Positions 11-19,168 of a DNA stretch of 29,231 bases are shown here, one piece after another. The position numbers were made by a program, and so were the translations under genes. This DNA is from a virus. Position 1 is the first letter of the stretch. Each line of letters opens with the position of its first letter. The stretch covers positions 1 through 29,231 of the IMG/VR virus record IMGVR_UViG_3300002460_000131; one strand, written 5' to 3'. The notes below the pieces were generated by a model, which was given only the letters and a program-made list of their open reading frames with translations, did no database searches and was not told the DNA's origin.

Positions 11-30
11 GGTCCTCTCCTTTCTCCTTA

Positions 31-705
31 CTACATCCCAGCTCCACACCATATCTTGCAGGCCGCAACCAGTATGCCGTCTGCGGAATAGCCAGCGATG
101 CTGCCGGCGCCGTAGGTTTCGGCAGCGTGATAGACCTCGGCGTAGGCGGCTAAGACAGCAGCCCGGGAGGAGAGAAGGGCCGCATTAGTGGAGTCATAAG
201 AAGCACTACGGGCCGCTCCGGCAGCCCGACTGATGCAAGTGGCGGCGGCGGCAGAGGCGATAGAGGCGTCGTTATCATGAACAATGCGGCGAATAGCAAT
301 GTCAGCAGTGTAGACAGCACGAGCCGCCTCAGTAAAAGTACCAGCCTTGCCACAGGCGGCAGCTTCGGCTTGTAAACCGCAAGCTGTTAACACTGGTGGC
401 AGCAGCTCTCGAACGGTTTGTAGTATAACCTCCTTTACCCATAACGTCCGCTTGTAATGCGGCCACTTTTCCCAGTCCCAAAGTGCCTCTAGGACTGGTA
501 CCAGCGCCTCAGTCCTGGCCTGGTCACTTGACCACGGCCCATCGTTCAACGGCCTAAGATCCGGCCACCGACTCGGGGTGTCTGACCATGGGTCACCTAT
601 CGCAGCGTGTGCCGCCTCTAACACACAAGCCTTACCATCGGCTTTTGTATGCTGACCGGCTGATAGCACCCCGTACTGTGCGACTATGTTCTGAAGCGTT
701 ACCAT
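31..705 (-). CDS. Ala-rich hypothetical phage protein (224 aa)
   Basis: I do not recognise a family with confidence. The ATG at 705-703 is preceded by TAGGAG three to four bases upstream, which fixes the start. The N-terminal half (about residues 1-100) is mixed and Trp-rich, with helix-like segments. The C-terminal half (about 115-215) is strongly Ala-rich with regularly spaced small residues and aromatic positions, as in long alpha-helical or repeat-like phage proteins. There is no signal peptide and no obvious enzyme motif. It is the last complete gene of the leftward cluster, 41 bases after the 54-aa gene, and is followed by another Shine-Dalgarno-led gene. GC content is clearly higher than in the rightward genes. 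The role is unknown. Confidence 0.75.
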   Translation of the reverse strand: MVTLQNIVAQYGVLSAGQHTKADGKACVLEAAHAAIGDPWSDTPSRWPDLRPLNDGPWSSDQARTEALVPVLEALWDWEKWPHYKRTLWVKEVILQTVRELLPPVLTACGLQAEAAACGKAGTFTEAARAVYTADIAIRRIVHDNDASIASAAAATCISRAAGAARSASYDSTNAALLSSRAAVLAAYAEVYHAAETYGAGSIAGYSADGILVAACKIWCGAGM

Positions 706-746
706 AATCTCCTACCTCTCCCTCCGGCCCGTACCGGCACCACTAA

Positions 747-911
747 CTACAGCATTGCTGCTATCTGCTCCTCCACTACCCTCCCTACCCACACCCTTTC
801 CCGCTTTTTCACCATCCGGAAGAACGCCTTCCGGTGTCGAGGCGCTGGCCCACAACAAGGACACTTAAGCCCCCCAGGGCCCAATCGGTTGAATATCCTT
901 CTGATATCCAT
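747..911 (-). CDS. Small basic Cys-motif protein (54 aa)
   Basis: A 54-codon reading frame fills the gap between the Ala-rich gene and the DUF4326 gene. It starts with ATG at 911-909, eight bases past the stop of the upstream gene; an AGGAG inside that gene's last codons can serve as ribosome binding site, though its spacing is long. The protein is basic. It carries a CPCC motif at residues 18-21 followed by a Lys/Arg-rich segment, and ends in a hydrophobic helix-like tail. Small proteins with one Cys pair and a basic tail are common in phage accessory regions and may bind zinc or nucleic acid; that is inference. A perfect 7-bp inverted repeat (816-822 with 828-834) lies inside the gene. Confidence 0.6.
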   Translation of the reverse strand: MDIRRIFNRLGPGGLKCPCCGPAPRHRKAFFRMVKKRERVWVGRVVEEQIAAML

Positions 912-918
912 ACCAGTA

Positions 919-1272
919 CTATCTCCTATTCGCTAACTCCACTAACACGTCACCGTGACATGCTAATGGCTTGCAGCAGCACACTAGGTCCTTACCCCTC
1001 AACTCCTCCAGGGGCAGGTTCTTCCCCACCCCTACAGTCATATACTCTCGGAATTTGGCGACCGCTTCCCTCCTTGATACAGTCGCCGTTATCTTGAAGG
1101 GATTCCCCCACTTAGAGGGTCTCATGATATTTATAGCACCATGAGGCACCCTACTTCGCCGGTTGTAGACCCTGGGAGTCGCAGCCTGCTGCTGGGCGGT
1201 AGTCATTCGCTGGAGCTCGCCTATCTGCTCAAGGCTGAACCCCATTACCATCAACTCCTCTATCTGAGTCAC
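919..1272 (-). CDS. DUF4326 domain protein with UBA-like N-terminus
   Basis: The C-terminal two thirds match the DUF4326 pattern. RPSKWGNPF sits at residues 51-59, an Arg/Ala-rich helix follows around 66-78, and CCCKPLACHGDVL at 98-110 holds the conserved Cys/His cluster near the end. DUF4326 proteins are small and common in phages and some bacteria; their biochemical role is not established to my knowledge. Residues 1-27 form a short helical motif (MGFSLEQIGEL) like a UBA or three-helix segment, also seen at the N-terminus of the neighbour at 1526-2047. The start is GTG, supported by AAGGAG six bases upstream. That ribosome binding site overlaps the stop of the 22-aa peptide gene, so the two are probably translationally coupled. 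Confidence 0.85.
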   Translation of the reverse strand: MTQIEELMVMGFSLEQIGELQRMTTAQQQAATPRVYNRRSRVPHGAINIMRPSKWGNPFKITATVSRREAVAKFREYMTVGVGKNLPLEELRGKDLVCCCKPLACHGDVLVELANRR

Positions 1273-1282
1273 TGGCTTCTCC

Positions 1283-1351
1283 TTAACTCACCAGAAGCAG
1301 TACCATGACTGCTATAGTGACTGCATATCCGACTACCGCTACTATTAGCAT
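1283..1351 (-). CDS. 22-aa single-span hydrophobic peptide
   Basis: The frame runs ATG (1351-1349) to TAA (1285-1283) and is preceded by GGAGGAG four to five bases upstream, one of the best ribosome binding sites in this cluster. The product is almost entirely hydrophobic (Leu, Ile, Val, Ala, with one Gly-Tyr), matching a single short transmembrane helix with almost no soluble part. Its stop overlaps the Shine-Dalgarno of the DUF4326 gene, indicating an operon. Possible roles include a membrane-active peptide or simply a leader that couples translation. The frame is very short, so the call rests on the ribosome binding site, the spacing and the composition. Confidence 0.5.
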   Translation of the reverse strand: MLIVAVVGYAVTIAVMVLLLVS

Positions 1352-1525
1352 TATACTCCTCCATCCCATCTAGCTAGAAGCTACTGCCCTACAGCTATTA
1401 GGCCCTTCCAGCCTCCCCTAATAGCTACTATACACTTAATAATTAGTTGCTGGCTAATCATTAGGCGTGGCCTAAGTATTGGGCCAAAGAGAGGAGAATT
1501 GCTCCCCCTCCCCTTGGCCCCCCGC
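1352..1525 (-). other. Intergenic region with three inverted repeats
   Basis: No gene was found here. Three hairpin-forming repeats lie between the stop of the gene at 1526 and the 22-aa peptide. The first is a perfect 10-bp repeat, AGCTATTAGG at 1393-1402 with its complement at 1417-1426. The second is a perfect 6-bp repeat with a 3-base loop, TTAGGC at 1461-1466 with GCCTAA at 1470-1475. The third is an imperfect long hairpin at 1481-1520 whose outer arms are GGGCCAA and TTGGCCC. None is followed by a clear U-run on the minus strand, so they may stabilise or process mRNA rather than terminate it. Confidence 0.55.
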
Positions 1526-2047
1526 CTAGATTGCGACCTTAGTACGGGTCGCAGTCCCGTTCCCGTTGTCCTTATCGGTGATGAACCCTCTCCTAGCGGT
1601 TAGGAACAGCCCCGCACCGGCCACTGCCACCTCGAAGGCCTCTTCCACCTCCTCCTTTCCGATGCCGAACTTCTCCTGGAGGGCCTCCAAGTACGTTCGC
1701 CCGAGACCCTTCACGATCCACCTCGGGTTCTGGAAACTGCCGTCCGCCAATTCGCCATTCTTCATGGTCTTGGCCTGATACTGCGCCACCTTCTTCCCGT
1801 GCTCGAAGATGGCCCGAACGAGCTCGGACGGCGAGACGTCACCAACCGGCTTCCACCTCGGGCCGCCATACACCTGCTGGACGGGAGGCGTCGGGAGCAC
1901 CCTGACCGGAGTAGTGGGCTGCGCCACCTTCTCCACCTTCTCCACATTCCCAGACTTAGCAGCGAACAGAGCCATAACTTGGTCGCTACTGAACCCGGCA
2001 GCAACCAACTCCTTCAATTGCGCCATCTCCCCGGCAGTGAGCATCAT
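1526..2047 (-). CDS. Hypothetical protein with UBA-like N-terminus
   Basis: The family is not recognised. The first 30 residues (MMLTAGEM..., with AGFSSDQVMALF) form a short helical UBA-like motif resembling the N-terminus of the DUF4326 protein in the same operon. A Pro/Val/Thr linker leads to a folded domain of about 100 residues containing Trp/Arg/Lys-rich and amphipathic helical segments, ending in a Gly/Asn/Thr-rich tail. Two starts are possible. A GTG at 2056 has a weak ribosome binding site. The ATG at 2047 has AGGTG six bases upstream and is preferred. The gene is GC-rich like the rest of the left arm and is the first gene of the leftward operon. No convincing leftward promoter was seen upstream. 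Confidence 0.75.
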   Translation of the reverse strand: MMLTAGEMAQLKELVAAGFSSDQVMALFAAKSGNVEKVEKVAQPTTPVRVLPTPPVQQVYGGPRWKPVGDVSPSELVRAIFEHGKKVAQYQAKTMKNGELADGSFQNPRWIVKGLGRTYLEALQEKFGIGKEEVEEAFEVAVAGAGLFLTARRGFITDKDNGNGTATRTKVAI

Positions 2048-2323
2048 CACGGACACCTCATACTCTTAGTCAGCAACCAAAACTTTCTGGCTGCTGCTGC
2101 CGACATCATGCCCAGACCCCGACCCCCCACGCTCCACCTCCGAACCCCACGCACGACAGGGAGGGGGGTGTGGACACGAGCAAGGGGCGGGCGAGATGTG
2201 GGAGAGGGAGGTCCCCCGTCTACTAAACAAAATTGAAAGGGGTGCGGGGGCCTTCCGATACGCGAGCAACAGCGTCGATGCTATTCCGTCGCCGGCTCCG
2301 CCCAACGCGATTCGCAATTGCTA

Positions 2324-2745: not shown

Positions 2746-3384
2746 ATGAACAGGAAAGAGGTAGCAAGGTACAAGGAAGAGGGTAAAAAGGCGGTGGTAG
2801 GGCGTGTAGATGGGCCAGAGACCGCAGGCAGGGAGACTGTAGGCTGGAAGATAGGGGCCTTTGTGGCAGAGCTTAGCGAGAAGTATGGGTTAAGTATAGC
2901 CCAGCGGATGTTTCTCATGTTGAGGTGGAGATTTAAGACAGATAGTGAGTGCGCTAAGTCACTAGGACTAAAGTCATCAACCGTACCGTCGTGGAAGAAA
3001 CCCCAAGAGTATGCTGATGGTAGGAAAATCGGTAACTTTAATGACGCTTATACTGATTATTTTAAGGGATTTGATGGGATACTACTGAGCGAATTAGAGG
3101 GGCTGATGGGTAAAGCGGTGCAAAGGATTGATGGGATGCTGGATGCTACGAAGAGCTGGATAGGTAAGGGTGGGGTAGAGATGGTAGCGCCTGATTACGA
3201 TACCGTATTCAAAGGATTGCAGGCGTTAGGGCATTTTACTGGTAGATGGGCGCCTCGTAATATTACAGAGATTAATAATAATATGGTAAATGTGAGCGAA
3301 GAGTTTGCAAAACTACTAAGAAGGAAACAGCAAGAGGCAAGTAAATCTGGTATAATAGAGGGAGAAATAGCAATAGTAGGGTGA
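2746..3384 (+). CDS. terS: Putative terminase small subunit
   Basis: This 212-aa protein probably recognises phage DNA and loads it onto the large terminase. A helix-turn-helix-like segment lies at about residues 55-85 (MFLMLRWRFKTDSECAKSLG, then STVPSWKK), the usual DNA-binding end of small terminases. A central helical region follows, and a C-terminal part around 150-190 (FKGLQALGHFTGRW) looks like the tail of many phage small terminases. Position supports the call: it is the first gene of the rightward packaging operon behind a strong promoter and upstream of portal and large terminase. ATG 2746 is the first start after an in-frame stop; its ribosome binding site is weak. The call rests on architecture and context rather than a diagnostic motif. 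Confidence 0.7.
   Translation: MNRKEVARYKEEGKKAVVGRVDGPETAGRETVGWKIGAFVAELSEKYGLSIAQRMFLMLRWRFKTDSECAKSLGLKSSTVPSWKKPQEYADGRKIGNFNDAYTDYFKGFDGILLSELEGLMGKAVQRIDGMLDATKSWIGKGGVEMVAPDYDTVFKGLQALGHFTGRWAPRNITEINNNMVNVSEEFAKLLRRKQQEASKSGIIEGEIAIVG
3346..3356 (+). promoter_or_regulatory. Extended -10 promoter TCTGGTATAAT, copy 1
   Basis: TCTGGTATAAT includes a consensus TATAAT with the extended TGn element. It lies within the 3' end of the small terminase gene and about 50 bases before the next small gene. The -35 position shows no good match. The identical 11-mer occurs again at 9754 and 27128, both directly upstream of genes. Confidence 0.45.
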
Positions 3385-3629: not shown

Positions 3630-3953
3630 ATGAAAGAGTACGGGTTTAAAATATCTATCCCACATCATGATCCGTCTGCCAGGATATTCCTATCGCACTT
3701 AGCCGAGGATAATAGGGAGGGGTTTGCGAAGGCTATTGCTATGGCGACTGCTGTAGAAATGGCGCAAAAAGATCCCAGGGTACTGTGGATATTAAGCCGT
3801 CCTGATATTATGATCGAGACGCATACTGAAACAACAACACATGTGGATTTCGTAATCACTGTAGATGATGACGAAGAGGCTCCGATAGGTCTCATTCCAT
3901 TAGTAGAAGCAGAGCCATTTCCAGAGATTATAGAAATAGGTAATGAGGTGTAG
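3630..3953 (+). CDS. Hypothetical protein (107 aa)
   Basis: The family is not recognised. The protein is acidic towards its C-terminus, with alternating strands and helices: a beta-like start with HHDP at residues 12-15, an Ala/Met-rich helix at about 30-45, a Thr-rich strand, an acidic VDDDEE patch at 77-82 and a hydrophobic tail. The ATG is coupled to the 29-aa frame upstream, with AGGA five bases before it. It ends in TAG at 3951-3953. The same frame continues as clearly coding sequence immediately afterwards (see the next gene), so the short distance between the two is notable. No membrane segment or signal peptide is present. Confidence 0.7.
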   Translation: MKEYGFKISIPHHDPSARIFLSHLAEDNREGFAKAIAMATAVEMAQKDPRVLWILSRPDIMIETHTETTTHVDFVITVDDDEEAPIGLIPLVEAEPFPEIIEIGNEV

Positions 3954-3956
3954 GTA

Positions 3957-6041
3957 ATCGCTGTATCAAGGCCGAGTATAGCAGATTTCCTTGGATCTAA
4001 TCAGGATCCTTGGCCACCACCACTCGATCCCGATGAAGAGGAGAGGAGAAGGAGGGAGCAGTGGAGGTATGTTCCACACCCGCAGTTACCTGGTGTAGGG
4101 CTGCCCGAGGAGGATACGTTAGGTAATAGGGTGGAAATGGTTGCAAGCTCACCTAGGGATTTGGGTGAAGCATTAGAACCTGCGGCGTTTGCTCTATCGA
4201 TGGGCGGTGGAACGCCAGGTGCCGCTGCGGGTATAGCAGATATAGAATTACAGGCTCGTAAAGAGGGTAGGGAGCCTGAATTATGGGAGAGGGGTTTAGG
4301 TGCTGCGGGAGGAGTGCCGATTGCGGGCGGCCTTCTTAGAAAGATGGCACCTGTCACGACAAAGTTATCAGATATGGTAAAGTTATATGGTGGTATGAAG
4401 TACGGGCCTAATGACTTATTAAATTTTATTAATTTGGGACGTCGCGACAGTGATATAGGGATCTTAGGCGGTTTAGATGTTCTAAAAAACCGGATAGCAA
4501 GGACTATTCAATCAGATAAGGTTATAAGAGAATTTCCAAGAATAGAACAGCATGTAAATAGCATATTACAAAAATATCCTGAAATGAGTGCCGGTACAGA
4601 GAATGTTATTGTAGATGTTCCAGGTGGTAGTAGGTATATGCCAGTGAGTGGTAATATCTATTACAACCCGCTTGAGGAATGGGATAGAGATTATGTAAAT
4701 AAAACTAATCGTACACGAGTTGATACAATGATGCATGAGCTTGTACACGGTATCGATAGCGCCGCAGGAAGTTCTTATCGCCCGTATACCCCACTTACAG
4801 AATTTTTAGGAACGCTTCGTGACAGTACGAAAGATATAGGATTTCGAATGCCTGGAGAACCTATAAATAATTTACAAACGCAAGGCTGGGTAGATGATCT
4901 TGATATTATACGACAAGATATGCCTGATTTTGGTACAGAAGCTCATAGAAAACGATTACTAAGCGAGTTAGAGCGTTTTAAACGCTCCTATTCCGACAGG
5001 GATTATGCTACTACCCCACCCACAGAGCTATTATCGATTATGATGGAAGATCCGGTAATAGCGGATAAGGCGATAGCGTGGCGTGATTTATTTGAATTAA
5101 TGAGGGATAGGATTAGAAAAGGCGATGCTACAGTACAACCGCCTATGACAGCAAACCAGTGGTTATCGCAGATAATAAACAATCCGTCACTACCAGGGTC
5201 ATACAGCGCTCAGCCTGGTAAAAGGGTACTGGCTCCAGAAGTAGTAGATTTTAAAAAGTTTCTGGGGGGATTACCTTTTCAGAGAGGGAGATTGTCTCTA
5301 AATGAGCTGGGAGATCTTGTAAACGCGCCGAACAAGACAGGACGTTTCGAGGATTCTATAAAAAGAGCGTATGGAGAAGCGTTTCAATTACAGGAGTACA
5401 TCGCCCCTAATGTTGAACGTGCGTTAGATACATACTCCCAAACCTCCACAAGGGGAATAAAAAAGCTTGGTGCGATACCTTTGCAAGATATTGCTAATAC
5501 ACGAGGAATCACAAGCGCGTTATTAGATTGGTTAGGCGTAAAAAATCCTGTTCTCTACAGAGTACGAAGGGATGTGGGGGGTAGTATTCGTCCTAAGAGA
5601 GGTCTTAGCTATAGCTCTGATCCTCGTATTGATCAGTTTTTACCTACTAAAGGACCTGTATATTCATCGGGGGTACCTACTAAGGAGATATTAGCATCGT
5701 ACATAACGCAGCCAAATGTAGAATGGAGTCCTAAAGAACGTGAATTCATACGATTGCCTGAATCTACGCTTTCACCGTTAAGTAAGCAGATTGATATACC
5801 GTTCAGAGACGCTATTAAGGGGACGTTACACGATGCTATGAGCATGCCATCACGGGCTGAGGCGCAAAAAGAGCTGGACGAGTTAAGCGTAGTGTATAAC
5901 ACTATGAAGCGTACGGCGTATTCTAGTAACGGTATGTGGACGGGCAGTGTACCGATAGATGAGTATACGAAAGTATATAGGAGGATCATGGAATTGGAAG
6001 ATCTACTATTTTATGGAGATATGGCCAATCCGGGATCATGA
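3957..6041 (+). CDS. Polyvalent-type protein: HExxH metallopeptidase plus ADP-ribosyltransferase-like domain
   Basis: This protein is about 694 aa if translation begins at an ATC codon (3957). The first conventional start is GTG 4131, giving 636 aa. In the 3957 numbering, an N-terminal motif PSIADFL is followed by an Arg/Glu-rich patch and a Gly/Ala-rich segment. HELVH at 260-264 matches the zincin zinc-binding motif; Glu357 in PPTELL is a possible third ligand. Near the C-terminus Arg535 (VLYRVRRD), Ser551-Tyr-Ser553 and Glu594-Arg-Glu596 (EREFIRLPES) follow the R-S-ExE order of ADP-ribosyltransferases. Both domain types occur in phage polyvalent proteins, thought to be delivered with DNA. 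The ribosome binding site GAGGTG lies six bases before the ATC. The gene sits between the terminase subunit genes. Domain calls are by eye. Confidence 0.65.
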   Translation: MAVSRPSIADFLGSNQDPWPPPLDPDEEERRRREQWRYVPHPQLPGVGLPEEDTLGNRVEMVASSPRDLGEALEPAAFALSMGGGTPGAAAGIADIELQARKEGREPELWERGLGAAGGVPIAGGLLRKMAPVTTKLSDMVKLYGGMKYGPNDLLNFINLGRRDSDIGILGGLDVLKNRIARTIQSDKVIREFPRIEQHVNSILQKYPEMSAGTENVIVDVPGGSRYMPVSGNIYYNPLEEWDRDYVNKTNRTRVDTMMHELVHGIDSAAGSSYRPYTPLTEFLGTLRDSTKDIGFRMPGEPINNLQTQGWVDDLDIIRQDMPDFGTEAHRKRLLSELERFKRSYSDRDYATTPPTELLSIMMEDPVIADKAIAWRDLFELMRDRIRKGDATVQPPMTANQWLSQIINNPSLPGSYSAQPGKRVLAPEVVDFKKFLGGLPFQRGRLSLNELGDLVNAPNKTGRFEDSIKRAYGEAFQLQEYIAPNVERALDTYSQTSTRGIKKLGAIPLQDIANTRGITSALLDWLGVKNPVLYRVRRDVGGSIRPKRGLSYSSDPRIDQFLPTKGPVYSSGVPTKEILASYITQPNVEWSPKEREFIRLPESTLSPLSKQIDIPFRDAIKGTLHDAMSMPSRAEAQKELDELSVVYNTMKRTAYSSNGMWTGSVPIDEYTKVYRRIMELEDLLFYGDMANPGS

Positions 6042-6042
6042 T

Positions 6043-7518
6043 ATGATTATACACCCATTTACAGCTATTGATTTCGAGATGATAGATTTTTGGTTAAAGA
6101 AAATCCTTCTCCCAACGCCATATAAACGTGCTGACAATTATCATAATGCAATACATAAAGAGCTTATACGCCCACGTTATGGAGAAGGCGGGCCGCTACC
6201 GATCCTTACTGTTCTATCAGGAGGTGAGCAAGCTGGGAAGAGTACCTTAGGCGCTGCTCATATGCTAGCTATGCATTGGTGTTCTAAAATCTTATGGATT
6301 GTGGGCGAGAGGTATGATGATACTCGTTTAGAGTTCCAATATCTCACAAGAAACGCGGTTGCTATAGGTATTATGAGGGGTGATGCTGTGAGCGCGCCTG
6401 CTAACGGCCCGTCCCGTGCTACGTTTAATAACGGTTGTGTCGTAAGGACATTAAGTAGTGAAGATGAGAGTACATTGGCGAGTGAAAGTCCTGATGGTGT
6501 ACTAATGGTGGAGGCGGGACGGCAAACATACCAAGCATTCAGAACTCTTTGGACGCGTGTTACACACAATACGGGATGGTTATTAGTCTCCGGGACCTTT
6601 GAGCAGTTTAAGGGACGCTGGTTTCCGGATCTTTGGAATATTTGTCAAGGTGATAACGAATTCCAGGGTAGATCGCTCTGCCTCCCTACCTATGCAAATC
6701 CCGAGAAATATCCTGACGGTCCACGAGACCCCAAGATATTAGCGATTAAAAAGACGTTAAGTGATGAAGAGTTTGATGAGAGGTTTCTTGGGACGCCTAG
6801 ATCGCCACTAGGAGTTGTTTTCCCAGAATTTCGGCGTAGTACACATGTAAAAACATATGCTGATTATACCCCACTCTACCCTATTAACATTTGGGTAGAT
6901 CCAGGATACTATCCTTCAAGTTATAGTGTACTCCTTACTCAGAATGTTGGCGGGCAGACTCGTTTATTCTACGAGTATTATACGAATACTAAACTTCCCT
7001 CCTACCTCAACATAAACCCCGACTCTCGACTGCCCTCAATGGTGAATGAAGATATTGCAAAGTATGTAGCTGGTAACTCGTTAGTTGAGGAATTTAAAAA
7101 AATTGTAATTGATATCGCCGCGGAGGCGCATGCGGGGGCAGGAGAACCAGCAGCAGAGGCATGGCGTAGAGAATTTGGTCCTAGAAATATACCAGTAGTA
7201 GGAAGATATGTTAAAATAGAAGAAGGATTGCAAAGAACCCATGACAGGCTTCGAATTAATCCGCTTACAGGGGCACCATATCTTATTATCCACCCATCAT
7301 GCGAAAACACTATATGGGAATTAGAAGAGGGTTATCGTTTCGCGTTACGAAAGGGTGGGGAGTTCGGGTCAGTAAATAAACCTATAGATAAGAATAATCA
7401 CTCTGCTAAGGCGATTGCGTATGGAATTATTGATGAGTTTGGAAAGGCTGATGGCGCACCACCAGAATCTAGACCACCTGCGCATCGCCGTATGAGTTAC
7501 GATAGGATGGTTATATAA
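6043..7518 (+). CDS. terL: Terminase large subunit
   Basis: This is the packaging motor ATPase and headful/cos nuclease acting at the portal. Numbered from the ATG at 6043 (491 aa), the Walker A loop is GGEQAGKS at 60-67. The Walker B strand is GVLMVE, with Asp151 and Glu157 as the likely acidic residues. In the RNase H-like nuclease half, acidic residues stand in WVDPG (Asp286), VIDIAAEAH (Asp357) and DKNNHSAKA (Asp449, His453). Length and motif order fit large terminases. An in-frame ATG at 5959 and another at 6013 exist, but both overlap the previous gene; ATG 6043 falls one base after its stop and directly before the conserved N-terminus. No start has a strong ribosome binding site. Portal follows after two bases. 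Confidence 0.92.
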   Translation: MIIHPFTAIDFEMIDFWLKKILLPTPYKRADNYHNAIHKELIRPRYGEGGPLPILTVLSGGEQAGKSTLGAAHMLAMHWCSKILWIVGERYDDTRLEFQYLTRNAVAIGIMRGDAVSAPANGPSRATFNNGCVVRTLSSEDESTLASESPDGVLMVEAGRQTYQAFRTLWTRVTHNTGWLLVSGTFEQFKGRWFPDLWNICQGDNEFQGRSLCLPTYANPEKYPDGPRDPKILAIKKTLSDEEFDERFLGTPRSPLGVVFPEFRRSTHVKTYADYTPLYPINIWVDPGYYPSSYSVLLTQNVGGQTRLFYEYYTNTKLPSYLNINPDSRLPSMVNEDIAKYVAGNSLVEEFKKIVIDIAAEAHAGAGEPAAEAWRREFGPRNIPVVGRYVKIEEGLQRTHDRLRINPLTGAPYLIIHPSCENTIWELEEGYRFALRKGGEFGSVNKPIDKNNHSAKAIAYGIIDEFGKADGAPPESRPPAHRRMSYDRMVI

Positions 7519-7520
7519 TT

Positions 7521-9662
7521 ATGATGAATTACCCAATGCAGGGCGTATTACCAGGAATGATGGAGTCATCTACTCCTACTACACTACCTACACCCCCTAC
7601 CCAACCGTCTTATCAGGGGATGATAGGGCTACCTGGAGAAATCGGCATCACATCGCCTCTTGATCGATTTGCTTTCAAGGAATTTAATAAAATGGCTGAT
7701 CAGCTCAACGAAGAGGAACTTCCACAGCTTTATGATTATATACTCAAAACATCCGATGTACTGATTAAGCATTGGGAGCCTCGTAATGAACGTATGCTCA
7801 GATCACAATCATTTTGGGAATTAGGATCTAGGTACGCTGAAGAGATGATTAGGAAGGCACGTGGTAAGAGTATAATTGATGGGGTTTCTGTGCAGGAAGG
7901 TGAGTTACTTGAATTAAATGATGGTTATTTAACTGTCGATAAGATTACGAGTATGGTGGCAGGAGCTCGTTGGGGGTTTGATGTACCGGCAGGACGCTTG
8001 GGTTTAGAAGATGTAGCACAATCAATTGAAGAGCTGTTAGTATGGGCAGATGATAAACTTGATAGAAAGTATAGTCAAGCACTTCACGGTAAGGCGATTC
8101 GGGATGAGGTTCATTATGCGGTGTTAAGGGGCTGGATAACCGGGATGATTATACCTAACCCAAACGACCGCTACCTACCGTGGACGTATCTCCTTGAAGA
8201 TCCTCTCTTTATATACCCACGATATAGCGGAGATGAGCTTTTGCAGGTAATACGTAAGTATACTGTATCAGTTATCGAAGCGCAGTCACAGTATGATACA
8301 GCATTTGAATATCTACTAGGTAAAGATGACGATGATGAGATTGATATAATTTGCTATTATGATTCTATTTATAAAATTGAGTTGTTAGTAGACGGAGGTA
8401 GTATTACAGTAAACGGGGCGCATGATAGAATAGTTTTACAACCACTTACTAAGCACGGATATACAGATTTACAAGGTAATTCATTAAACCCTTGGATTAT
8501 AATCACTCCTCGCGGAACACCAACTCGCCGTTTTAGCACATCTCGTACACAAAGTGATCGTGAAAGCGCTATTGCTCATATCGGTCTCGATGCCTTATAC
8601 CCTATTATCGGTATGATAGAAGCTTTCGAACTTCTTCTACAAATGCTTCTCACAGAAGTGTCAAAAGGTGTAAATCCACCACGACTAATATTCTATGACG
8701 GTTTTAATAAACCAGAACCATTAGACCTGGGTATCGGTGGCGAGAACTATATGATAATGCATACACAGGATGCTAGGATTCTAGATAGTACTGCGATGAA
8801 GCCTGATGCGGGTCCTATTCTACAAGTTATTCAAGAGCGTTTACAAAAAGGTGGGGTACCAAGCGTTCTCTATGGACAGAATACCGGGGTATTAGCGGGA
8901 TATGCGATTAACCTGTTAAGCCAGGGAGCGCAAGATGTAGTACAACCAATCTTGCATGGAATACAGAGGTTTAGGGAGATTAAGTTTGAGCGGATGTTAG
9001 AGATGTATGCAACAATTGGATACCAATTCGCCGGGCCTTTACAAATTGCTATGAATGACCCTAACACAGGACGTAAGTATATGAGTGGAAAATATATTGA
9101 TCCGTCGATGATTTACGCAAATGGTACCCATGTCGATGTTACATTTGATGCGGTGACGCCGAGAGATTCCGTGCCGCTTATTCAAGCCGCTGTAGGGGCA
9201 AATCAGGCCGGAATTCTCCCGTTATACGACGCTATGAAAGATTGGGTCGGTATAGAGGATCCAAGGGCGGCAATGCAGAGGCTAGCTGAGGGAATGAATT
9301 GGCATGATCCAGCAGTACAGAAGCATCTCGCTAGAGCGGCGGGAATGAAGAGTGGAAATCAACAATTAAAAGACGCTGTTCTAGCTGCGATGGCAGAGGA
9401 ACAAGCAATGTTGGATATGCAGTTACAGCAGATGGGAATGACGGTGGCCAGCGGTCAAGAGAGTACTTCTCAACAACCGCAGCCGAAAGGACAAGCTGGG
9501 GGCGCTGGAGGAAGAGCAACTAACGCATCTCCTCCCGCTAATCAGAATCCAATAACTGCTACAACCAACCAGGCGAATAATGTAGCAGCAAGTCTTAATG
9601 TGGGTAATGGAGGTTCAATGCCAATACCAAACCAACTTTCTAAGTTTTTAGGGGGTGAGTAG
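7521..9662 (+). CDS. Portal protein
   Basis: This 713-aa protein would form the dodecameric ring through which the terminase packs DNA. It follows the large terminase with a two-base gap. The first 35 residues are a Pro/Thr-rich disordered leader. The body has the mixed helix/strand layout of portal proteins. A conserved-looking segment from about residue 446 (VPSVLYGQNTG, then LAGYAINLLSQGA) resembles the crown/stem region seen in many phage portals. The last 100 residues are Gln/Ala/Gly/Asn-rich and low complexity, ending in LSKFLGGE. Length fits large portals of podovirus- or siphovirus-type phages. It is the most reliably placed structural gene after the terminase; the call combines context and overall pattern. 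Confidence 0.88.
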   Translation: MMNYPMQGVLPGMMESSTPTTLPTPPTQPSYQGMIGLPGEIGITSPLDRFAFKEFNKMADQLNEEELPQLYDYILKTSDVLIKHWEPRNERMLRSQSFWELGSRYAEEMIRKARGKSIIDGVSVQEGELLELNDGYLTVDKITSMVAGARWGFDVPAGRLGLEDVAQSIEELLVWADDKLDRKYSQALHGKAIRDEVHYAVLRGWITGMIIPNPNDRYLPWTYLLEDPLFIYPRYSGDELLQVIRKYTVSVIEAQSQYDTAFEYLLGKDDDDEIDIICYYDSIYKIELLVDGGSITVNGAHDRIVLQPLTKHGYTDLQGNSLNPWIIITPRGTPTRRFSTSRTQSDRESAIAHIGLDALYPIIGMIEAFELLLQMLLTEVSKGVNPPRLIFYDGFNKPEPLDLGIGGENYMIMHTQDARILDSTAMKPDAGPILQVIQERLQKGGVPSVLYGQNTGVLAGYAINLLSQGAQDVVQPILHGIQRFREIKFERMLEMYATIGYQFAGPLQIAMNDPNTGRKYMSGKYIDPSMIYANGTHVDVTFDAVTPRDSVPLIQAAVGANQAGILPLYDAMKDWVGIEDPRAAMQRLAEGMNWHDPAVQKHLARAAGMKSGNQQLKDAVLAAMAEEQAMLDMQLQQMGMTVASGQESTSQQPQPKGQAGGAGGRATNASPPANQNPITATTNQANNVAASLNVGNGGSMPIPNQLSKFLGGE

Positions 9663-11663: not shown

Positions 11664-11972
11664 ATGCCATTACCACCAATGTCGGATACACTTCGTGATT
11701 ATTATAGCGCTAACCCGCTAGCAGCCTTTAACTTCCTATACCCTACTACTGGCTATCATAGAGCAAAAACCGACTGGTTTCGCTCTCGCTACCAACCACT
11801 ATTTGAACAATATGAGGCAGCAGGCCCGTCCGCTCCTAACGCCTCATTTATGGATTTTCTTGGCGGAACAAATCTAGGTAATGATTTCATGAACCTTTCG
11901 CCAGCAGCTCGTGGGGAACAACGAGGATTAATGACCCCGCGGATCAATTATAATAGCAGGTGGTTTAGGTAA
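11664..11972 (+). CDS. Short relative of the shared-module proteins (102 aa)
   Basis: This small protein has DYYSANPLAAFNFLYP near its start, then TGYHRAKTDWFRSRYQPLF and PNASFMDFLGG in its middle. The TDW-F/M-RS step and the N-x-x-F-x-D-F-L-x-G step also occur in the C-terminal module of the 441-aa protein, in the same order. It therefore looks like a minimal stand-alone copy or a decayed relative. The ATG lies 14 bases after the upstream stop with a GGGGG ribosome binding site. The stop TAA overlaps the ATG of the 2398-aa gene (TAATG), so the two are probably translated together, and it may be a partner of the giant protein. Function is unknown. Confidence 0.65.
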   Translation: MPLPPMSDTLRDYYSANPLAAFNFLYPTTGYHRAKTDWFRSRYQPLFEQYEAAGPSAPNASFMDFLGGTNLGNDFMNLSPAARGEQRGLMTPRINYNSRWFR

Positions 11973-14900
11973 TGCCATTCGCACCACCTTCTATAGCAAG
12001 GTTTCTAAATCCTGGTGATCCAATCTCCCCAGACGATCTGGAAGAGAAGAGGCGTCGTGAGGCTCTTCTCGCCATGGGAATCGATCCCGATACAGGGCTG
12101 CAACTAGGATTCGGACGTGACACACAAGCTACTGAAGAGGTGCCTACTATTGTAGGAGGAAGTGCTCTTCCCCCATCTCCACAACAGCCATTTGAGCCTC
12201 GTACAATTGAGCCTAGAGGGTTTCAAACCCCACTACTTTCAGACGAGTGGACAGGTCCTGTAGGACCAATAGATAATCCAGTGTCTGAGGAAATCCGAAA
12301 ACGTAATAATATATTAAGAGAAGGATCACAGGACCCGTTACTATCGATCATGAATCGTATTATAGGATCGGATCCTAGAGACCCATTCGGCATGCAACAG
12401 GGTGTAAGGGGTGCTGTTGGCCGACCAGTATCCAATATTATTAAGGATATAAAAAAGCTTTATTACAACCCGGAAACTGTGCCGCCAGAGTTCATGCGAT
12501 TAGATAAGAGTGTAGCACCGATAATCGGTAATCTTATCGCTTCTCAATTACCTTTCGAGACTAATACTATTGGTAAGCAGTTAGAACAAGGATCAGTACA
12601 GCGTCCGGAAGGACCGCTAGTTGATATGGATCCTAATCTAGTAACAGGTATTCGTCAGCGCCCTCACGAACCTTATATGCCTGCTGGTACTCCTGGCCGT
12701 AGTGGAATAGGTGATTATCTTGCGGAGATTATGGGAGGAGCTATGATGGCAACTCCTCCACTACCTCCTGGTACAGGAAGGGTAATAGGTCAAGGATTAG
12801 GGCGCGGAGCGTTAGCTGGTGGACGCATGGCAGAAGATATCGCTAATAAAGCGTTAACGGGTACGGTTCGTGGAGCTGTATCAGCCGCTGAATCAGGAGT
12901 AGGTAGGAGGGTGGGTAGGGCTATTAGTGAGGCAGAGCGCCAGGTAACGGGCTCATACGCACGACCCGCAAGAAGGCAAATTGCCCGATCTTCTGATCTT
13001 GCACGAGGTCTTGATGCTTCTCAAAATACATTTATTAAACAAATTGTTGCTAAAATGGATGAGGAGAATCCTAAATGGCGTGAAACACCAGGGCCGAGAC
13101 AAGAAGATCTTCTTATGCGTAAATCTGCTGAAGTACGTGATGAAATACGTGGGACTCCACAAGAGATCCCAGAGGAATATTTAAACGATATCCCTACATC
13201 TGAAGAGGCGCGTGTTGCTCCATCTGTCTGGGAAACTGCTGTGAATACTGAAGGGGATTATTGGAATCAGCAAAGTACACAGGGTCAAAGAGAACTGGCA
13301 CAAGCCGCGGGTATTAGTGTAGGTTCTCAGCGAAGACCCTGGTCAAGCCTTCTACCACCTGACCAGAACAAGATTATTACCGCAATACAATCCCAAGTAC
13401 CAGAGTTTCAAGGAGGTATACAAGGTACTGGTGTGGGTGAACTAACAGTACCCGGAGCAAACTTACGCCGGCGTGCTACAAGCGTTCCCATTCGTGTACG
13501 TATAGCTCAGTATGAACAGCCCTCTATAATCGGATCTACTGATCGCACTACATGGGCACTACACCGCGCGGAATTAGAAGTTATTGTGAAAAACTCGGAC
13601 AATCTTCCTGCTAATCAAGCAGCTCTTTATCAAAAATATCTTAAAGAGTGGGATAATACTATAGATGAGATGCTTACCGACCCTGTACTTGCTAAACAAA
13701 TCACTGAAGGAGCTTTAGAGGGTAATAAGGATCTTATCATGAAGCATAAAGAAGCGCTAGATCGTCTAAAACGCCCGGATACTCTATCAGCTCCTGGTAG
13801 TGTAGAAGCAGAAGTTCCTATAGAAATAGTACGTAAAGCAAGAGCGGTAGGGGAGTTAAATACAGTACGGATACTATTACGTGAGGCTGATGAGGCTTCG
13901 AAGTCTCCCCGCCCAATTCTACCAAATGGGCAGCGTAAGACAATAGAAGATCATGAGGCCGATACTATACTTAGCATTTTTGAAACTAATGGTATAGACG
14001 CGTCTGATCCTATATCTGTGTATACAGGTCATTATCGTGGTAGTCCTCTCGTGAACACAAGAGAGGGTACGATAGGATTCTTATCTCGTGAAGAAGCTCT
14101 TGCTCAGCATCCAGAGTCTACTGATTGGATAGTAGAAGAATATATTATTACTCCTTCAGATATTATATCCACAAAACCACAGGCAGGACGTGTACTAAAA
14201 GGCGTGGATACTGGCGATTTTGTGAGGTTCCGTCCAGACACTACTCATCCACACGGCGCACAAATCCCTAATGAAATACCAGGAGAGTACGATGTTCCGA
14301 AGAGGGATGTGCCACGGACAGATAAATTACAAGAGGTTATAAGATCACAAGAACCTTATCAAATGCCTGATAAGCCTGGACCAATAGCACAAAGCCCAGA
14401 ACCTGGGCTCGAGCCCGTTACTCAAAGCCCAGAAGAGCAGTTTCGACAACTCCTTACACGCATTGATGAGATATTAGCTAACGAACCGGAGCGTATCAAA
14501 CAGATAGCGCCTGGAGACGAACAAGCAGTATTATGGGGAACGCCACAACAAGAACGAATGATACAGCAGTACGCAAAGGAACGTGGTGAAGCTACTCCCA
14601 AACCACCGACAGACGCAAATCTGTTTGCACCTAAAACAGGACGTTATGGTGAACTGTTAGAAAAGGCTGGTAGAGGAGAGGAGCTAACAGCAGGAGAGTA
14701 TAATGAGCTGTTAGATTTACGTACGGCAGAGGTAGGAAGAGCACCACGGACCATAACACCTATTGATACGACGATACCAACGTTCGAGAGGGAAATAACA
14801 CCGCCATTTGTAAATAAGGGAAATCCGACGCCCCGACGCCGCATGTCTGAAGGCTATAACCCTGACCTTGCACCAGATGCGGCGGCTAATCGTGAGTTTA

Positions 14901-17900
14901 TTACGATTGAACCTCCAAAAGTAGAGCCTATAAAACAACCATTTGATGAGGTTCTAGACCGCCTTCGTGCTAAAGCCAAAGAGAATCTAGCTAATAAGGC
15001 AAAATTAGCATCGGGTACGGAGCAAATAAAACCAGCTCCTACTATAAAAGAAGAGATAACAGCATTAGCAAATGAATATAATACAAAAGGGGTAGGGAAG
15101 GAACGTAAAGCAGAAATTGTACTAAAGATCAGGCAGTTACGTGCAAGAGAGAATGCTAGAATTCGTAGAAGTATGCCTGATGAGTCTCGACCTGATGAAA
15201 GTAACCTGAATGAGTTTGAGGGACTCTATGACGATTTATCAAAAGAAGATAAGACTAAAATCCTTCTTGGTCGTGGGGTTCCTTCAGAACAGGTACCGCA
15301 TGTTATCGGTATAGAAGGATTGTTATGGGATGATCTTAACGAACTATTTCCTCGTACTAAATCTGTTAATGTTCCAGGTACAGAGCCGATAGTAACTGAA
15401 CCAGTACCTACTACACCCACTGTTAAGAAACCACGGGCTAAATTTCAACCCCCAAGTGATGTACGTGATCTTCGAGAATGGGTAGAAGCGGATCCAACAC
15501 ATAAGCGTACCATAAAAATCGCTGTGAGAACAAAATCTCAAAATCAAGAAAAGTTATATAGGGCTAGTGGAGTTGATGAATTCGGACATACCTTTGAAGT
15601 TTATAACGGTAAACAACCGGCAGGGGCTATATGGGATTTAGATCAAGCAAAAGCTGCTACTAACCGTGCATTGCATCGTGCATTAGGATTGCCAGATCGT
15701 CCTGGTACTGTGGCTAACAAGCTAACAAAATCACTAGCCGGTGAAGGGTGGACAGAAGAGCAGGCTAAAAACCATATCCAAGATGTGTATGGTAAAGGTC
15801 ATGATGGTGTGTATGTGAGTATCAATAAAACACAACGTACGCTTATGGTTAGGGGTACTGGTCCGGATAATAAACCATTTAAACAAATTTATAAATATAC
15901 TAAAGGCGCTGGTGAGAATAGTCTTGAGAACAAAACTCTCCAGATGGTGAACTGGTTAGAAAATCATCAGGTTGTTAAAAAGGCAGATCGTCCAGCCTCT
16001 ACACTACCAGTACATCTACAAACAACTACCCTTTCAAAAGGGCAGATTACTGGTAAAGAGCAGCCAGAAGGTGTTGGGTTGGGGCATGTCATGTTCGAAA
16101 AACCGGGTCTGGTCTTTAACCCGGATAAGGTTAGATTTCTACCAGATACTATCGCATCTGATGGTAAGTCGAAGATTAAGCATGTAGGTTATGGATATGG
16201 CGATAGTGATAAGGTTGTGGGAAGTGGCAAGACTCTAAAGGATGCCGCAAGCGATGCGTTTAACAAATGGATAAATTCGGATAGTGGTGGAAAGCTTGAT
16301 GAGGCGGCGCGTAAAAAATTAGAGATTGAACATGGTGTTACCACCTCCCAGCCTGATAAAACACGGAATTGGTCACGGCTTGACGCTATACTCTCTTTAC
16401 GTAGAGACGGTCAATTTCAAGCATCCGGTTATGGGGTAGCGGTGCGTGGAGAGGTTACAAAAAAAGGAGGCCCAAGAATCTTAGCGATTACTAAAGATGG
16501 TGTAGTAGTTGGTTACACACCAGCCGCTGATTCATGGAAAAATGCTGCCTCAAGTGCTAAACAGTTAGCAATGACAAAGATGGGGACAGTAGAAGGGGGA
16601 GAGATAACGGCGTTAGAACTTACGGGCGGGGGTCGTGGTAAATACACTCGTAATTGGGGAGTAGGTGGCGATAAAGGTAAGGATGGTGGTAAGGTAGCAA
16701 CTACCACCTCTGAACCTGTACCACCAACCTCAATGCCCATGGATATCAGACAATTAGTAGATCGTCTTGCTGAAGCTGTCGATGCACAAAGACCGTTACG
16801 AACAGAACAGGCCGCTCTACATAGGCAATGGACGAGGCAGCGTACAGTAGATCTAGTATCAGCAGGTAAGAGTTTAACTGGTGAAGACAGATTCTACGCA
16901 CAGTTGAAGGCGCTTGGTGGCGAGATGCCTAAAGTTGGTACCGATACTATATACAATAAATTTACAAAAGTGGAGCGGGACGCACTTCTTAACTACATCG
17001 AAGATACTATCAAGCTTCGTCCTAGAGACACTTCAGTTAAAATCGCCCAGGATGTTCATAATAGTCAAGTTGAATGGATTACTCATCATTTAGCATGGGA
17101 TCGTTTTAACGCGAAGGACGCTCTTCATCGAGTATTTAACGGAGAGTTGATATCTGATGCTGATATAAAATATATGGGAAGAGTGTTTGGACGTGATCTA
17201 GTTAAAAAGCTAATGGATGCGAATAAGACGGGTACTCAGCAGGCAGTAGGATTAGCTCTAGACTACCTGGGTGCTCCAACAGCCCTTGTCTCATCTGGCG
17301 ACTTCTCCTGGCCTTTCCGACAAGGGCTTGCTGTACTAACCACTCATCCAAAAGCGTGGTTCGGGATGTGGAAGCCTATGATAAAAGCGGCTTTTAACAA
17401 GAAAGAAGCACAACGTATATACACTGAATTAGTACAACGCCCTTACTATTCCATCGGAGAGGAGAGCGGGTTAGAGATTCCTAAATGGGACGCTATTATT
17501 CATCTATCAGACCGAGAAGAAGGGTTACAGGTAGCGTTACTGGAGAAAGCTCCTCACGTGGCTGCTGCAAACCAGGGGTTTGTTACAGCAGGTAACGTTG
17601 CTCGTGCAGCTATGTTTGATAGAATGGCTCAGGATTTAGAGGCGTTAGGGTATACAATGACTAAAGACCCTAAACAGTTTGCTCATATCGCGGATTATGT
17701 GAATACGTTAACAGGGCGTGGTCATTTACCATTACTACAACGCCATGATTCACTACGCCGTGTATTAGGCACTGCTATGTTCTCCCCACGATACTTCTTA
17801 TCACGTTGGCAGTTGTTAGGAAAAACAGCAAAGGCTGGTTATAGTGCTATAGGCGGCCAGACCGATTACTCACCATACGTACGTGATCTTATACTTAAAG

Positions 17901-19168
17901 ATTCAATAAAATCAGTAGGGTTAGGTTTAGTGACGCTTGGTGCTATTAAGTGGGCAGCTTCCAGCGGTATGATAGAGGATGTCGATGTGGAGGCGGATCC
18001 TCGTTCCTCTGACTTTGGAAAGGTTCGTATAGGAGATACCGCATTTGATATGTGGGGCGGCCATCTACAAAACCTACGGTTTTTAGCCCAATTCTTTACA
18101 GCGCGCCGCAAAGCGGCTGGGAGTTTAGAAGTCTCCGAAGCTAACAGATTTAAAGATATATTACCAAGGTATCTACAGTCTAAGGCAGCCCCACTCGTAT
18201 CAAGTATACTAGAGGAAGGGTCTGGAGAAACGTTTGCCGGTGAAGATTTGAATAAACTAAATATGGCGGAACGCGCTGCCATTCGCACACTAAATCTAAT
18301 CGCCCCGCTCTCTGTTCAAGATATATGGAAAGGGATTAAAAGTTATCAAATGGATTGGATGCTTGCACCTATCATCACATACTCCCTAACGGGTGGCGGT
18401 GTGGAAACTCATTATCGTCCAGAACACCACGTTCCCGGCCTTCGTATGTATGAGAACGTAGATAAATTAGCTGCTCATACAGTATCTGACTTTTTTGGGG
18501 GGAGTGATAAAGATAAGGAGGAGCTGGAACGGAAATTGATTGCATATGGAAATGCTATAAAGAAAGGAGCTGCTATAGAACAGAAGAATGCGGTTGGTGA
18601 TCGTGTAGTTATAGATACATATACACGACTTAAATCCTTCTACTCTAACAAAATTCTATGGGATTATCAGAACTACGGGCTTGTTGATTACTTACGGACC
18701 AAAAACCAAACAGAGACAGGATTTACTCCAACGCAACCAAAACTAGATACCGATCTTCCAAATCCCGAACCCTCTGGTGAGAAACCAAAGAACCTACGTG
18801 GTCCGTGGCCTCAAGGATATACTAAGGATTGGGCTGCCAATACATTCGGTCCTAGATGGGGAATTGAAAATCCTTTAGTAGACGGTAAACATCAACCGTT
18901 ATACTTCAACCAACTTCCTAAAGAGTATCAAGAAGCGATTACTACATGGCTACGAGAGCTAGGCCCTGTTGCATTTCGGTTATATAAAAAAGACGAGTTT
19001 TGGGAGTTAAATGCGTCGCAAAAAGCAAATGTAATAAAAGCCTTAGGACATACACCAATCCTTGACACCGCCGCTCCAGAGGCGCGAATGCGTGAGGCGC
19101 TAAGAACCATAGAGAGTAAACCATTACCGACCGAGAAGGAAATACGTCGGATAGCTGAAGGGAGATAG
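11972..19168 (+). CDS. Giant polyvalent-type protein (2398 aa)
   Basis: The N-terminal motif PPSIARFLNPGD followed by EEKRRRE matches the start of the protein at 3957. Residues up to about 330 are Gly/Pro/Ala-rich. A segment at about 682-735 (VYTGHYRG, then GFLS, then VEEYIITPSDII) is weakly reminiscent of ADP-ribosyltransferase folds. Residues about 760-1150 are Pro/Glu-rich and disordered or helical. Several beta-beta-alpha-like modules lie at about 1185-1560. From about 1604 (PLRTEQAALHRQ, ERFYAQLKALGGEMPK-type pattern) to RVFG near 1736, and then SGDFSWPFRQG near 1773, TGRG near 1912 and MFSPRYFLSR near 1935, the sequence matches modules typical of very large phage polyvalent proteins, close to large polyvalent-associated domain 38. 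A hydrophobic stretch lies at 1980-1998. The probable role is an internal or ejected virion protein. Confidence 0.75.
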   Translation: MPFAPPSIARFLNPGDPISPDDLEEKRRREALLAMGIDPDTGLQLGFGRDTQATEEVPTIVGGSALPPSPQQPFEPRTIEPRGFQTPLLSDEWTGPVGPIDNPVSEEIRKRNNILREGSQDPLLSIMNRIIGSDPRDPFGMQQGVRGAVGRPVSNIIKDIKKLYYNPETVPPEFMRLDKSVAPIIGNLIASQLPFETNTIGKQLEQGSVQRPEGPLVDMDPNLVTGIRQRPHEPYMPAGTPGRSGIGDYLAEIMGGAMMATPPLPPGTGRVIGQGLGRGALAGGRMAEDIANKALTGTVRGAVSAAESGVGRRVGRAISEAERQVTGSYARPARRQIARSSDLARGLDASQNTFIKQIVAKMDEENPKWRETPGPRQEDLLMRKSAEVRDEIRGTPQEIPEEYLNDIPTSEEARVAPSVWETAVNTEGDYWNQQSTQGQRELAQAAGISVGSQRRPWSSLLPPDQNKIITAIQSQVPEFQGGIQGTGVGELTVPGANLRRRATSVPIRVRIAQYEQPSIIGSTDRTTWALHRAELEVIVKNSDNLPANQAALYQKYLKEWDNTIDEMLTDPVLAKQITEGALEGNKDLIMKHKEALDRLKRPDTLSAPGSVEAEVPIEIVRKARAVGELNTVRILLREADEASKSPRPILPNGQRKTIEDHEADTILSIFETNGIDASDPISVYTGHYRGSPLVNTREGTIGFLSREEALAQHPESTDWIVEEYIITPSDIISTKPQAGRVLKGVDTGDFVRFRPDTTHPHGAQIPNEIPGEYDVPKRDVPRTDKLQEVIRSQEPYQMPDKPGPIAQSPEPGLEPVTQSPEEQFRQLLTRIDEILANEPERIKQIAPGDEQAVLWGTPQQERMIQQYAKERGEATPKPPTDANLFAPKTGRYGELLEKAGRGEELTAGEYNELLDLRTAEVGRAPRTITPIDTTIPTFEREITPPFVNKGNPTPRRRMSEGYNPDLAPDAAANREFITIEPPKVEPIKQPFDEVLDRLRAKAKENLANKAKLASGTEQIKPAPTIKEEITALANEYNTKGVGKERKAEIVLKIRQLRARENARIRRSMPDESRPDESNLNEFEGLYDDLSKEDKTKILLGRGVPSEQVPHVIGIEGLLWDDLNELFPRTKSVNVPGTEPIVTEPVPTTPTVKKPRAKFQPPSDVRDLREWVEADPTHKRTIKIAVRTKSQNQEKLYRASGVDEFGHTFEVYNGKQPAGAIWDLDQAKAATNRALHRALGLPDRPGTVANKLTKSLAGEGWTEEQAKNHIQDVYGKGHDGVYVSINKTQRTLMVRGTGPDNKPFKQIYKYTKGAGENSLENKTLQMVNWLENHQVVKKADRPASTLPVHLQTTTLSKGQITGKEQPEGVGLGHVMFEKPGLVFNPDKVRFLPDTIASDGKSKIKHVGYGYGDSDKVVGSGKTLKDAASDAFNKWINSDSGGKLDEAARKKLEIEHGVTTSQPDKTRNWSRLDAILSLRRDGQFQASGYGVAVRGEVTKKGGPRILAITKDGVVVGYTPAADSWKNAASSAKQLAMTKMGTVEGGEITALELTGGGRGKYTRNWGVGGDKGKDGGKVATTTSEPVPPTSMPMDIRQLVDRLAEAVDAQRPLRTEQAALHRQWTRQRTVDLVSAGKSLTGEDRFYAQLKALGGEMPKVGTDTIYNKFTKVERDALLNYIEDTIKLRPRDTSVKIAQDVHNSQVEWITHHLAWDRFNAKDALHRVFNGELISDADIKYMGRVFGRDLVKKLMDANKTGTQQAVGLALDYLGAPTALVSSGDFSWPFRQGLAVLTTHPKAWFGMWKPMIKAAFNKKEAQRIYTELVQRPYYSIGEESGLEIPKWDAIIHLSDREEGLQVALLEKAPHVAAANQGFVTAGNVARAAMFDRMAQDLEALGYTMTKDPKQFAHIADYVNTLTGRGHLPLLQRHDSLRRVLGTAMFSPRYFLSRWQLLGKTAKAGYSAIGGQTDYSPYVRDLILKDSIKSVGLGLVTLGAIKWAASSGMIEDVDVEADPRSSDFGKVRIGDTAFDMWGGHLQNLRFLAQFFTARRKAAGSLEVSEANRFKDILPRYLQSKAAPLVSSILEEGSGETFAGEDLNKLNMAERAAIRTLNLIAPLSVQDIWKGIKSYQMDWMLAPIITYSLTGGGVETHYRPEHHVPGLRMYENVDKLAAHTVSDFFGGSDKDKEELERKLIAYGNAIKKGAAIEQKNAVGDRVVIDTYTRLKSFYSNKILWDYQNYGLVDYLRTKNQTETGFTPTQPKLDTDLPNPEPSGEKPKNLRGPWPQGYTKDWAANTFGPRWGIENPLVDGKHQPLYFNQLPKEYQEAITTWLRELGPVAFRLYKKDEFWELNASQKANVIKALGHTPILDTAAPEARMREALRTIESKPLPTEKEIRRIAEGR

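What the first reader, a model, noticed from the sequence alone, without database searches (positions are those of the whole stretch)
4734..5745. Metallopeptidase plus ADP-ribosyltransferase-like protein inside the packaging module
Seen: HELVH at 4734-4748 and, downstream, Arg (YRV), Ser-x-Ser and Glu-x-Glu in the right order and spacing for an R-S-E ADP-ribosyltransferase. Known: zincin and ADP-ribosyltransferase domains are recurrent in phage polyvalent proteins, which are proposed to be injected early to alter host proteins. Inference: this is a virion-borne effector able to cleave or modify host proteins. Its place between terS and terL is unusual.
Basis: partly seen in the sequence, partly recalled or inferred. 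Interest (0 to 1): 0.75.

Follow-up and report, generated by a model that had tools for sequence, protein, structure and literature searches.

The report
Likely injected phage zincin–ART protein
An unusual environmental phage carries, just before its DNA-packaging motor gene, a protein that looks like a protease joined to a possible NAD-using protein modifier, and it begins with the same short peptide as the phage's giant internal protein, which suggests that both ride inside the virus particle into the bacterium.

Summary
The ORF very probably starts at a non-standard ATC at 3957, not at GTG 4131. Its first 34 residues match the N-terminus of the 2,398-aa giant protein at the same offset (1 of 20,000 permutations), and the leader DNA also aligns, ATC under ATG.

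Zincin: well supported. HExxH has a 0.4% chance in shuffles. Its profile score to zincins inside a giant phage protein of the same LPD group exceeds all 300 random pieces. No curated family matches.

ART: weaker. The generic R-S-E pattern occurs in about 20% of shuffles and unrelated proteins. A profile of an uncharacterised phage family (phrog_4776) aligns in catalytic register, with a score that 4 of 450 random pieces reach. It is not ART-PolyVal. AlphaFold2 was uninformative.

Best reading: a virion-borne polyvalent-type effector with a shared capsid-targeting-like tag. Whether it acts on host or phage proteins is open. A location beside terminase genes is typical of phage ARTs (PMC9503650), not unusual.

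The parts
3957..6041 (+). Candidate effector gene 'ZA' (694 aa from ATC 3957; 636 aa from GTG 4131), ends TGA
   Evidence: start by shared N-terminus and leader DNA with giant gene
3957..4058 (+). N-terminal tag, residues 1-34 (IAVSRPSIADFLGS...EEERRRRE), shared with giant protein N-terminus
   Evidence: 52% identity over 29 aa, both at residue 6; score 56, 1 of 20,000 permutations; null maximum 41 in 5,417 N-terminal pairs
3936..3959 (+). Leader and ATC start (...GAGGTGTAGGTA-ATC), parallel to giant gene AGGTGGTTTAGGTA-ATG
4182..4349 (+). Gly/Ala-rich mildly hydrophobic segments (residues about 76-131)
   Evidence: Kyte-Doolittle maxima 1.08 and 0.88, below a usual transmembrane level
4518..5115 (+). 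Zincin-like metallopeptidase domain (HELVH 4734-4748; Asp267 three residues after the motif; third ligand probably E357 at 5025-5027, alternative E301)
   Evidence: hhalign to L047 zincins score 31.7, 69 columns, P 4.4e-4; random maximum 25.5 of 300; Peptidase_M91 sub-threshold E 0.028
5550..5760 (+). Candidate R-S-E ADP-ribosyltransferase-like domain (R535 5559, S551 5607, E594/E596 5736-5744)
   Evidence: Register match to phrog_4776-type family; no Pfam, NCBIfam or PADLOC match
5847..6017 (+). C-terminal helical hairpin (residues about 631-687)
   Evidence: Only confidently predicted part of the AF2 model, pLDDT 76-92 over most of it
6043..7518 (+). TerL gene; probable start ATG 6043, 1 nt after the ZA stop (listed ORF from 5959)
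   Evidence: phrog_2 7.9e-13; tblastn to Microbacterium phages; start read from sequence
2746..3384 (+). Possible TerS (position only)
   Evidence: No profile match
3630..3953 (+). 107-aa ORF of unknown function, in the same frame as ZA, ends TAG directly upstream
11972..19168 (+). Giant 2,398-aa protein with large-polyvalent-protein-type C-terminal region and the same N-terminal tag
   Evidence: tblastn to ctf1B273 giant 6e-11; 291 IMG/VR stretches share the VDVxADPxSxDFxK block

Best explanation
The gene encodes a virion-borne early effector of the polyvalent-protein type. Shown by sequence: a zincin-like metallopeptidase domain, and an N-terminal peptide shared with the phage's giant LPD protein. 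Inferred: the shared peptide acts as a capsid-targeting tag, like the T4 internal-protein CTS or the N-terminus of P1 DarB, and brings both proteins into the procapsid. The protein leaves with the DNA during infection. The zincin then cuts either itself, the giant protein, or a host protein, and the C-terminal domain, probably an R-S-E ADP-ribosyltransferase, modifies host macromolecules using NAD+. Rough step probabilities: zincin fold 0.85, virion-borne 0.7, ART 0.5, catalytically active in the host cell 0.35.
For: HExxH with hydrophobic flanks, Asp at +3 as described for phage polyvalent zincins (PMC5512222), and profile similarity to zincins embedded in an LPD giant protein of a related phage: 31.7 against a random maximum of 25.5 in 300, and 13-26 for other HExxH proteins. 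Several LPD-carrying loci have HExxH zincins in or directly beside the giant (L047 twice, L026, L069, L100, L104, L105/L106), and two have ART-PolyVal domains over the cut-off. N-terminal tag shared with giant. Late-gene position next to TerL, as for many phage ARTs. ART-like register match: 17.4, reached by 4 of 450 random pieces, none over 45 or more columns. Precedents for capsid-targeting N-termini: T4 internal proteins (PMC3012670) and P1 DarB (PMC9024508). N4 vRNAP is an ejected virion protein whose C1 domain carries HExxH (PMC12633501).
Against: No homologue of the full protein in IMG/VR, phage records, or GTDB genomes, so conservation of the catalytic residues could not be tested. No curated family match at threshold. 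hmmsearch with the ART-like profile gives no positive score, and that family is itself of unknown function. AF2 models are unusable for the active sites. Virion content was not measured. The shared-tag and ART statistics are partly post hoc.
Confidence: 0.5

Rival explanations
1. Maturation protease reading: the zincin processes the phage's own internal proteins (itself and/or the giant 2,398-aa protein) during or after packaging, and the C-terminal part is structural, not an ART.
For: Polyvalent zincins are proposed for autoprocessing, with P1 DdrB cut before packaging (PMC5512222). The gene sits among head-assembly genes. The ART evidence is weak.
Against: The C-terminal region keeps S-x-S and E-x-E in register with a separately fetched phage family. 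N4 vRNAP is packaged unprocessed although it holds a zincin.
Confidence: 0.3
2. Structural or ejectosome protein with no enzyme activity: a divergent ejection protein in which HExxH is degenerate or coincidental.
For: Orphan protein; HExxH occurs in 1% of phage ORFs of at least 250 aa; no family match.
Against: Zincin profile similarity beyond the motif, 69 columns.
Confidence: 0.12
3. Intracellular effector made late, not packaged (for example protecting the terminase from host defence or acting at lysis).
For: Gene directly precedes TerL; protection of the packaging apparatus was offered as an alternative for terminase-linked ARTs (PMC9503650).
Against: N-terminal tag shared with the giant protein, which is of virion-protein type.
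Confidence: 0.08

Closest known systems
Polyvalent proteins of phages and conjugative elements (Iyer et al. 2017, PMC5512222)
   Same: Disparate enzyme domains in one polypeptide (if the ART is real), zincin-like peptidase with Asp at +3, virion-gene context; the same genome encodes a giant LPD-type protein
   Different: Only 694 aa; no match to MPTase-PolyVal or ART-PolyVal; candidate ART is R-S-E, not H-Y-D; zincin and candidate ART are on a separate gene from the LPD region
Zincins in or beside LPD giant proteins of related IMG/VR phages (L047 two copies; L104 stand-alone 699-aa protein beside the LPD protein)
   Same: HELxHxID motif and upstream strand region align with L047; L104 protein is of similar size and adjacent to the LPD gene
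   Different: About 22% identity; no ART-like region recognised there; located beside the LPD gene, not before TerL
phrog_4776-type phage family (YRG / G[LF]SWTT / ExE; L115, L132, L137 and others)
   Same: Order and spacing of R, S-[WY]-S/T and E-x-E; a V-x-K-x-x-I/V-L-A stretch before ExE
   Different: Mostly small proteins without a zincin, function unknown; score only modestly above random
T4 Alt and T4 internal-protein CTS; P1 DarB N-terminus
   Same: Head-packaged effectors entering with DNA; N-terminal sequence directs capsid targeting (PMC3012670, PMC9024508)
   Different: No sequence relation tested; tag function here is inferred only
N4 virion RNA polymerase C1 domain
   Same: HExxH zincin-like domain in an ejected virion protein (PMC12633501)
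   Different: About 3,500-aa polymerase; no similarity found in the PDB sequence searches
Peptidase_M91 (PF14891)
   Same: Best sub-threshold Pfam hit of the zincin segment, E 0.028
   Different: 15.2 bits against a cut-off of 25; only 42 residues

Membership tests
Zincin-like metallopeptidase superfamily | HExxH motif on a helix | tested here: met
   HELVH 4734-4748; the AF2 model puts it in a helix (residues 81-98 of the segment) but at pLDDT below 50, so only the motif itself is firm
Zincin-like metallopeptidase superfamily | Third zinc ligand Glu on a second helix | tested here: inconclusive
   E357 (TTPPTELLSIMME) or E301 (MPGE); L047 has QPGEVRAR; MAFFT does not align E357 with it
Zincin-like metallopeptidase superfamily | Profile similarity to a zincin family beyond the motif | tested here: met
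   31.7 against L047 zincins, 69 columns; 0 of 300 random pieces reach it; curated libraries sub-threshold only
MPTase-PolyVal (PF18818) | Match above gathering score | tested here: not met
   No match in own record at E 1
ART-PolyVal (PF18760, H-Y-D clade) | Match above gathering score; H-Y-D active site | tested here: not met
   No match; residues here are R-S-E; alignment to ART-PolyVal domains of L073/L094 not above shuffles
R-S-E ADP-ribosyltransferases | Arg on strand 1, S-x-S/T on strand 2, E-x-E in order | tested here: inconclusive
   Order present but found in 20% of shuffles; register match to phrog_4776-type profile, 4 of 450 random pieces reach the score
R-S-E ADP-ribosyltransferases | ART fold with the three residues in one NAD cleft | tested here: inconclusive
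   AF2 single-sequence model pLDDT 44, ART region below 40
Polyvalent proteins | Two or more disparate domains in one polypeptide | tested here: inconclusive
   Zincin supported, ART only probable
Polyvalent proteins | Encoded with virion or packaging genes | tested here: met
   Next to TerL, same strand as the giant and the MCP about 15 kb downstream
T4/P1-type capsid-targeted internal proteins | N-terminal peptide common to co-packaged proteins | tested here: inconclusive
   Peptide shared with the giant; co-packaging not observed
T4/P1-type capsid-targeted internal proteins | Peptide sufficient for packaging; protein in virion | not testable with these tools
   Needs bench work

The most novel reading that the evidence does not exclude
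This phage uses a short terminal peptide code ([DRK][FW][LI][GTNQ][GSP]) as a common address for internal virion proteins: at the N-termini of the zincin-ART protein and the giant protein, at the C-termini of the portal and of two paralogous proteins, and near the C-terminus of a small one. It would be a modular cargo-loading system that lets unlinked genes supply injected effectors.
Probability: 0.3. Interest if true: 0.65.

Novelty: new variant of a known kind. Interest (0 to 1): 0.45.

Why it matters
If true, the protein is a compact, stand-alone version of the giant polyvalent effectors, with a different ART class and a visible loading tag. It would show how effector domains can sit on a separate gene from the giant ejection protein and stay virion-borne by keeping the same N-terminal address. 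The tag gives a direct bench test of how such phages choose internal cargo.

Tried and rejected
Full-protein searches in IMG/VR, GTDB contigs, phage records, Pfam, NCBIfam, PADLOC, PHROGs and PDB sequences found nothing. TerL-, portal- and giant-based scans with single proteins found distant TerL relatives or nothing. A two-row alignment of the LPD block succeeded, but none of 5,076 ORFs in the loci held at that point is a clear homologue of the whole protein. AF2 on both domains, single sequence, failed (pLDDT 44 and 41), so no fold search was run. Recoding or readthrough of the TAG before the frame was considered and rejected: several other window genes end in TAG, and the tag begins after the TAG at the same offset as in the giant. 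Direct kinship with ART-PolyVal was rejected. The terminal motif was looked for in relatives and is rare there (3 of 765 ORFs). Rfam and tRNA scans of the window were empty. One query contained a meaningless 28-aa string typed in error; its empty result is ignored.

Full report
What the sequence holds. The window is a 29,231-base IMG/VR virus record. The ORF in question is open from 3954 to 6041 on the + strand. The first standard start is GTG 4131, but coding evidence reaches back to 3957.

Start codon. The first 34 residues from 3957 match the N-terminus of the giant protein 11972-19168: PSIADFL...EEERRRRE against PSIARFL...LEEKRRRE, both at residue 6. The local score is 56, reached by 1 of 20,000 permutations, while the largest score in 5,417 random N-terminal pairs from related loci is 41. 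The DNA also aligns: TGTAGGTA-ATC here and TTTAGGTA-ATG in the giant gene. An ATC start, or an ATG altered in this copy or its assembly, is the simplest reading. Recoding of TAG is unlikely, because several genes here end in TAG.

Zincin. HExxH is expected in 0.4% of shuffles of this protein. No curated family passes; Peptidase_M91 is the best sub-threshold hit (E 0.028). I then collected 80 loci that share the C-terminal LPD block of the giant protein. Several of their giant proteins, or adjacent proteins, carry HExxH zincins. A two-copy zincin in L047 aligns with this protein over 69 columns with score 31.7; 300 random pieces reach at most 25.5, and other HExxH proteins in the set reach 13-26. 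Asp267, three residues after the motif, fits a clade described for phage polyvalent proteins (PMC5512222); the conserved His at the end of strand 2 described for that clade was not recognised here. E357 as third ligand is likely but not shown; E301 is an alternative.

ADP-ribosyltransferase. The generic R, S-x-S, E-x-E pattern is found in 20% of shuffled C-termini and 19% of unrelated ORFs, so it proves nothing alone. A phage family with YRG, G[LF]SWTT and E-x-E was recruited with a DNA pattern and extended. It is phrog_4776, of unknown function. Its profile aligns here with S551 under SWT and E596 under the second Glu, score 17.4, P 0.018. Four of 450 random pieces reach that score and none does so over 45 or more columns. 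With the smaller first profile the score was not significant, though the alignment then also covered the region of R535, and hmmsearch found no such match. The family was chosen because I recalled its resemblance, so this is moderate, partly post hoc evidence. The protein is not ART-PolyVal, whose published active site is H-Y-D.

Structure. AlphaFold2 without relatives failed for both domains. Only a C-terminal helical hairpin (about residues 631-687) is confident.

Context. TerL follows directly, with a probable start at ATG 6043, one base after the stop codon. TerS is unverified. MCP is 27% identical to Pelagibacter phages and DSL-LC06. The giant resembles the 1,582-aa giant of ctf1B273, which itself contains a zincin. 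Phage ARTs are often found beside terminase and portal genes, and are thought to be packaged (PMC9503650).

Shared short motif. [DRK][FW][LI][GTNQ][GSP] occurs within 40 residues of a terminus in 6 of 22 window proteins: this protein, giant, portal, 10324-11649, 11664-11972 and 19173-20291. The expectation from shuffles is 0.09. In related loci it is 3 of 765 ORFs. The pattern was defined after seeing these sequences, so the figures overstate its strength. T4 internal proteins and P1 DarB are precedents for N-terminal capsid targeting.

Mechanism. Most likely the protein is packed with the giant protein through the shared N-terminus, is injected, and acts early. Shown: sequence features and the tag. 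Inferred: packaging, injection, catalysis and targets. Self-processing by the zincin is a serious rival to attack on host proteins (PMC5512222).

Verdict. A new variant of a known kind: a compact polyvalent-like effector with a supported zincin, a candidate R-S-E ART, and a tag shared with the giant internal protein.

Noticed in passing
window 9642-9659, 11626-11649, 11853-11867, 20268-20291, 11999-12013, 3984-3998: Short motif [DRK][FW][LI][GTNQ][GSP] near the termini of six proteins (portal, two paralogues, a small protein, giant, this protein); 6 observed against 0.09 expected in shuffles, rare in related loci.
   Followed up: partly
window 10324-11649 and 19173-20291: Two paralogous proteins (E 1e-6) flank the giant protein, sharing ISNPYTD and a similar C-terminus; probably virion proteins.
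   Followed up: partly
window 1-2300: Minus-strand ORFs with GC 0.55 against about 0.44 elsewhere; possible early module. 919-1272 looks like a DUF4326 protein by eye.
   Followed up: no
window 24366-25829 and 22571-23353: Glycosyltransferase fused to a methyltransferase-like domain and a possible second glycosyltransferase by eye.
   Followed up: no
window 23310-23708: Protein with CNHCGWCC cysteine cluster, YkgJ-like by eye.
   Followed up: no
L115, L132, L136, L137, L138, L139 and others: phrog_4776 family (YRG / G[LF]SWTT / ExE) is unannotated but has the layout of an R-S-E ADP-ribosyltransferase; worth a structure prediction.
   Followed up: partly
L073, L094: LPD giant proteins with ART-PolyVal domains above the family cut-off.
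   Followed up: partly
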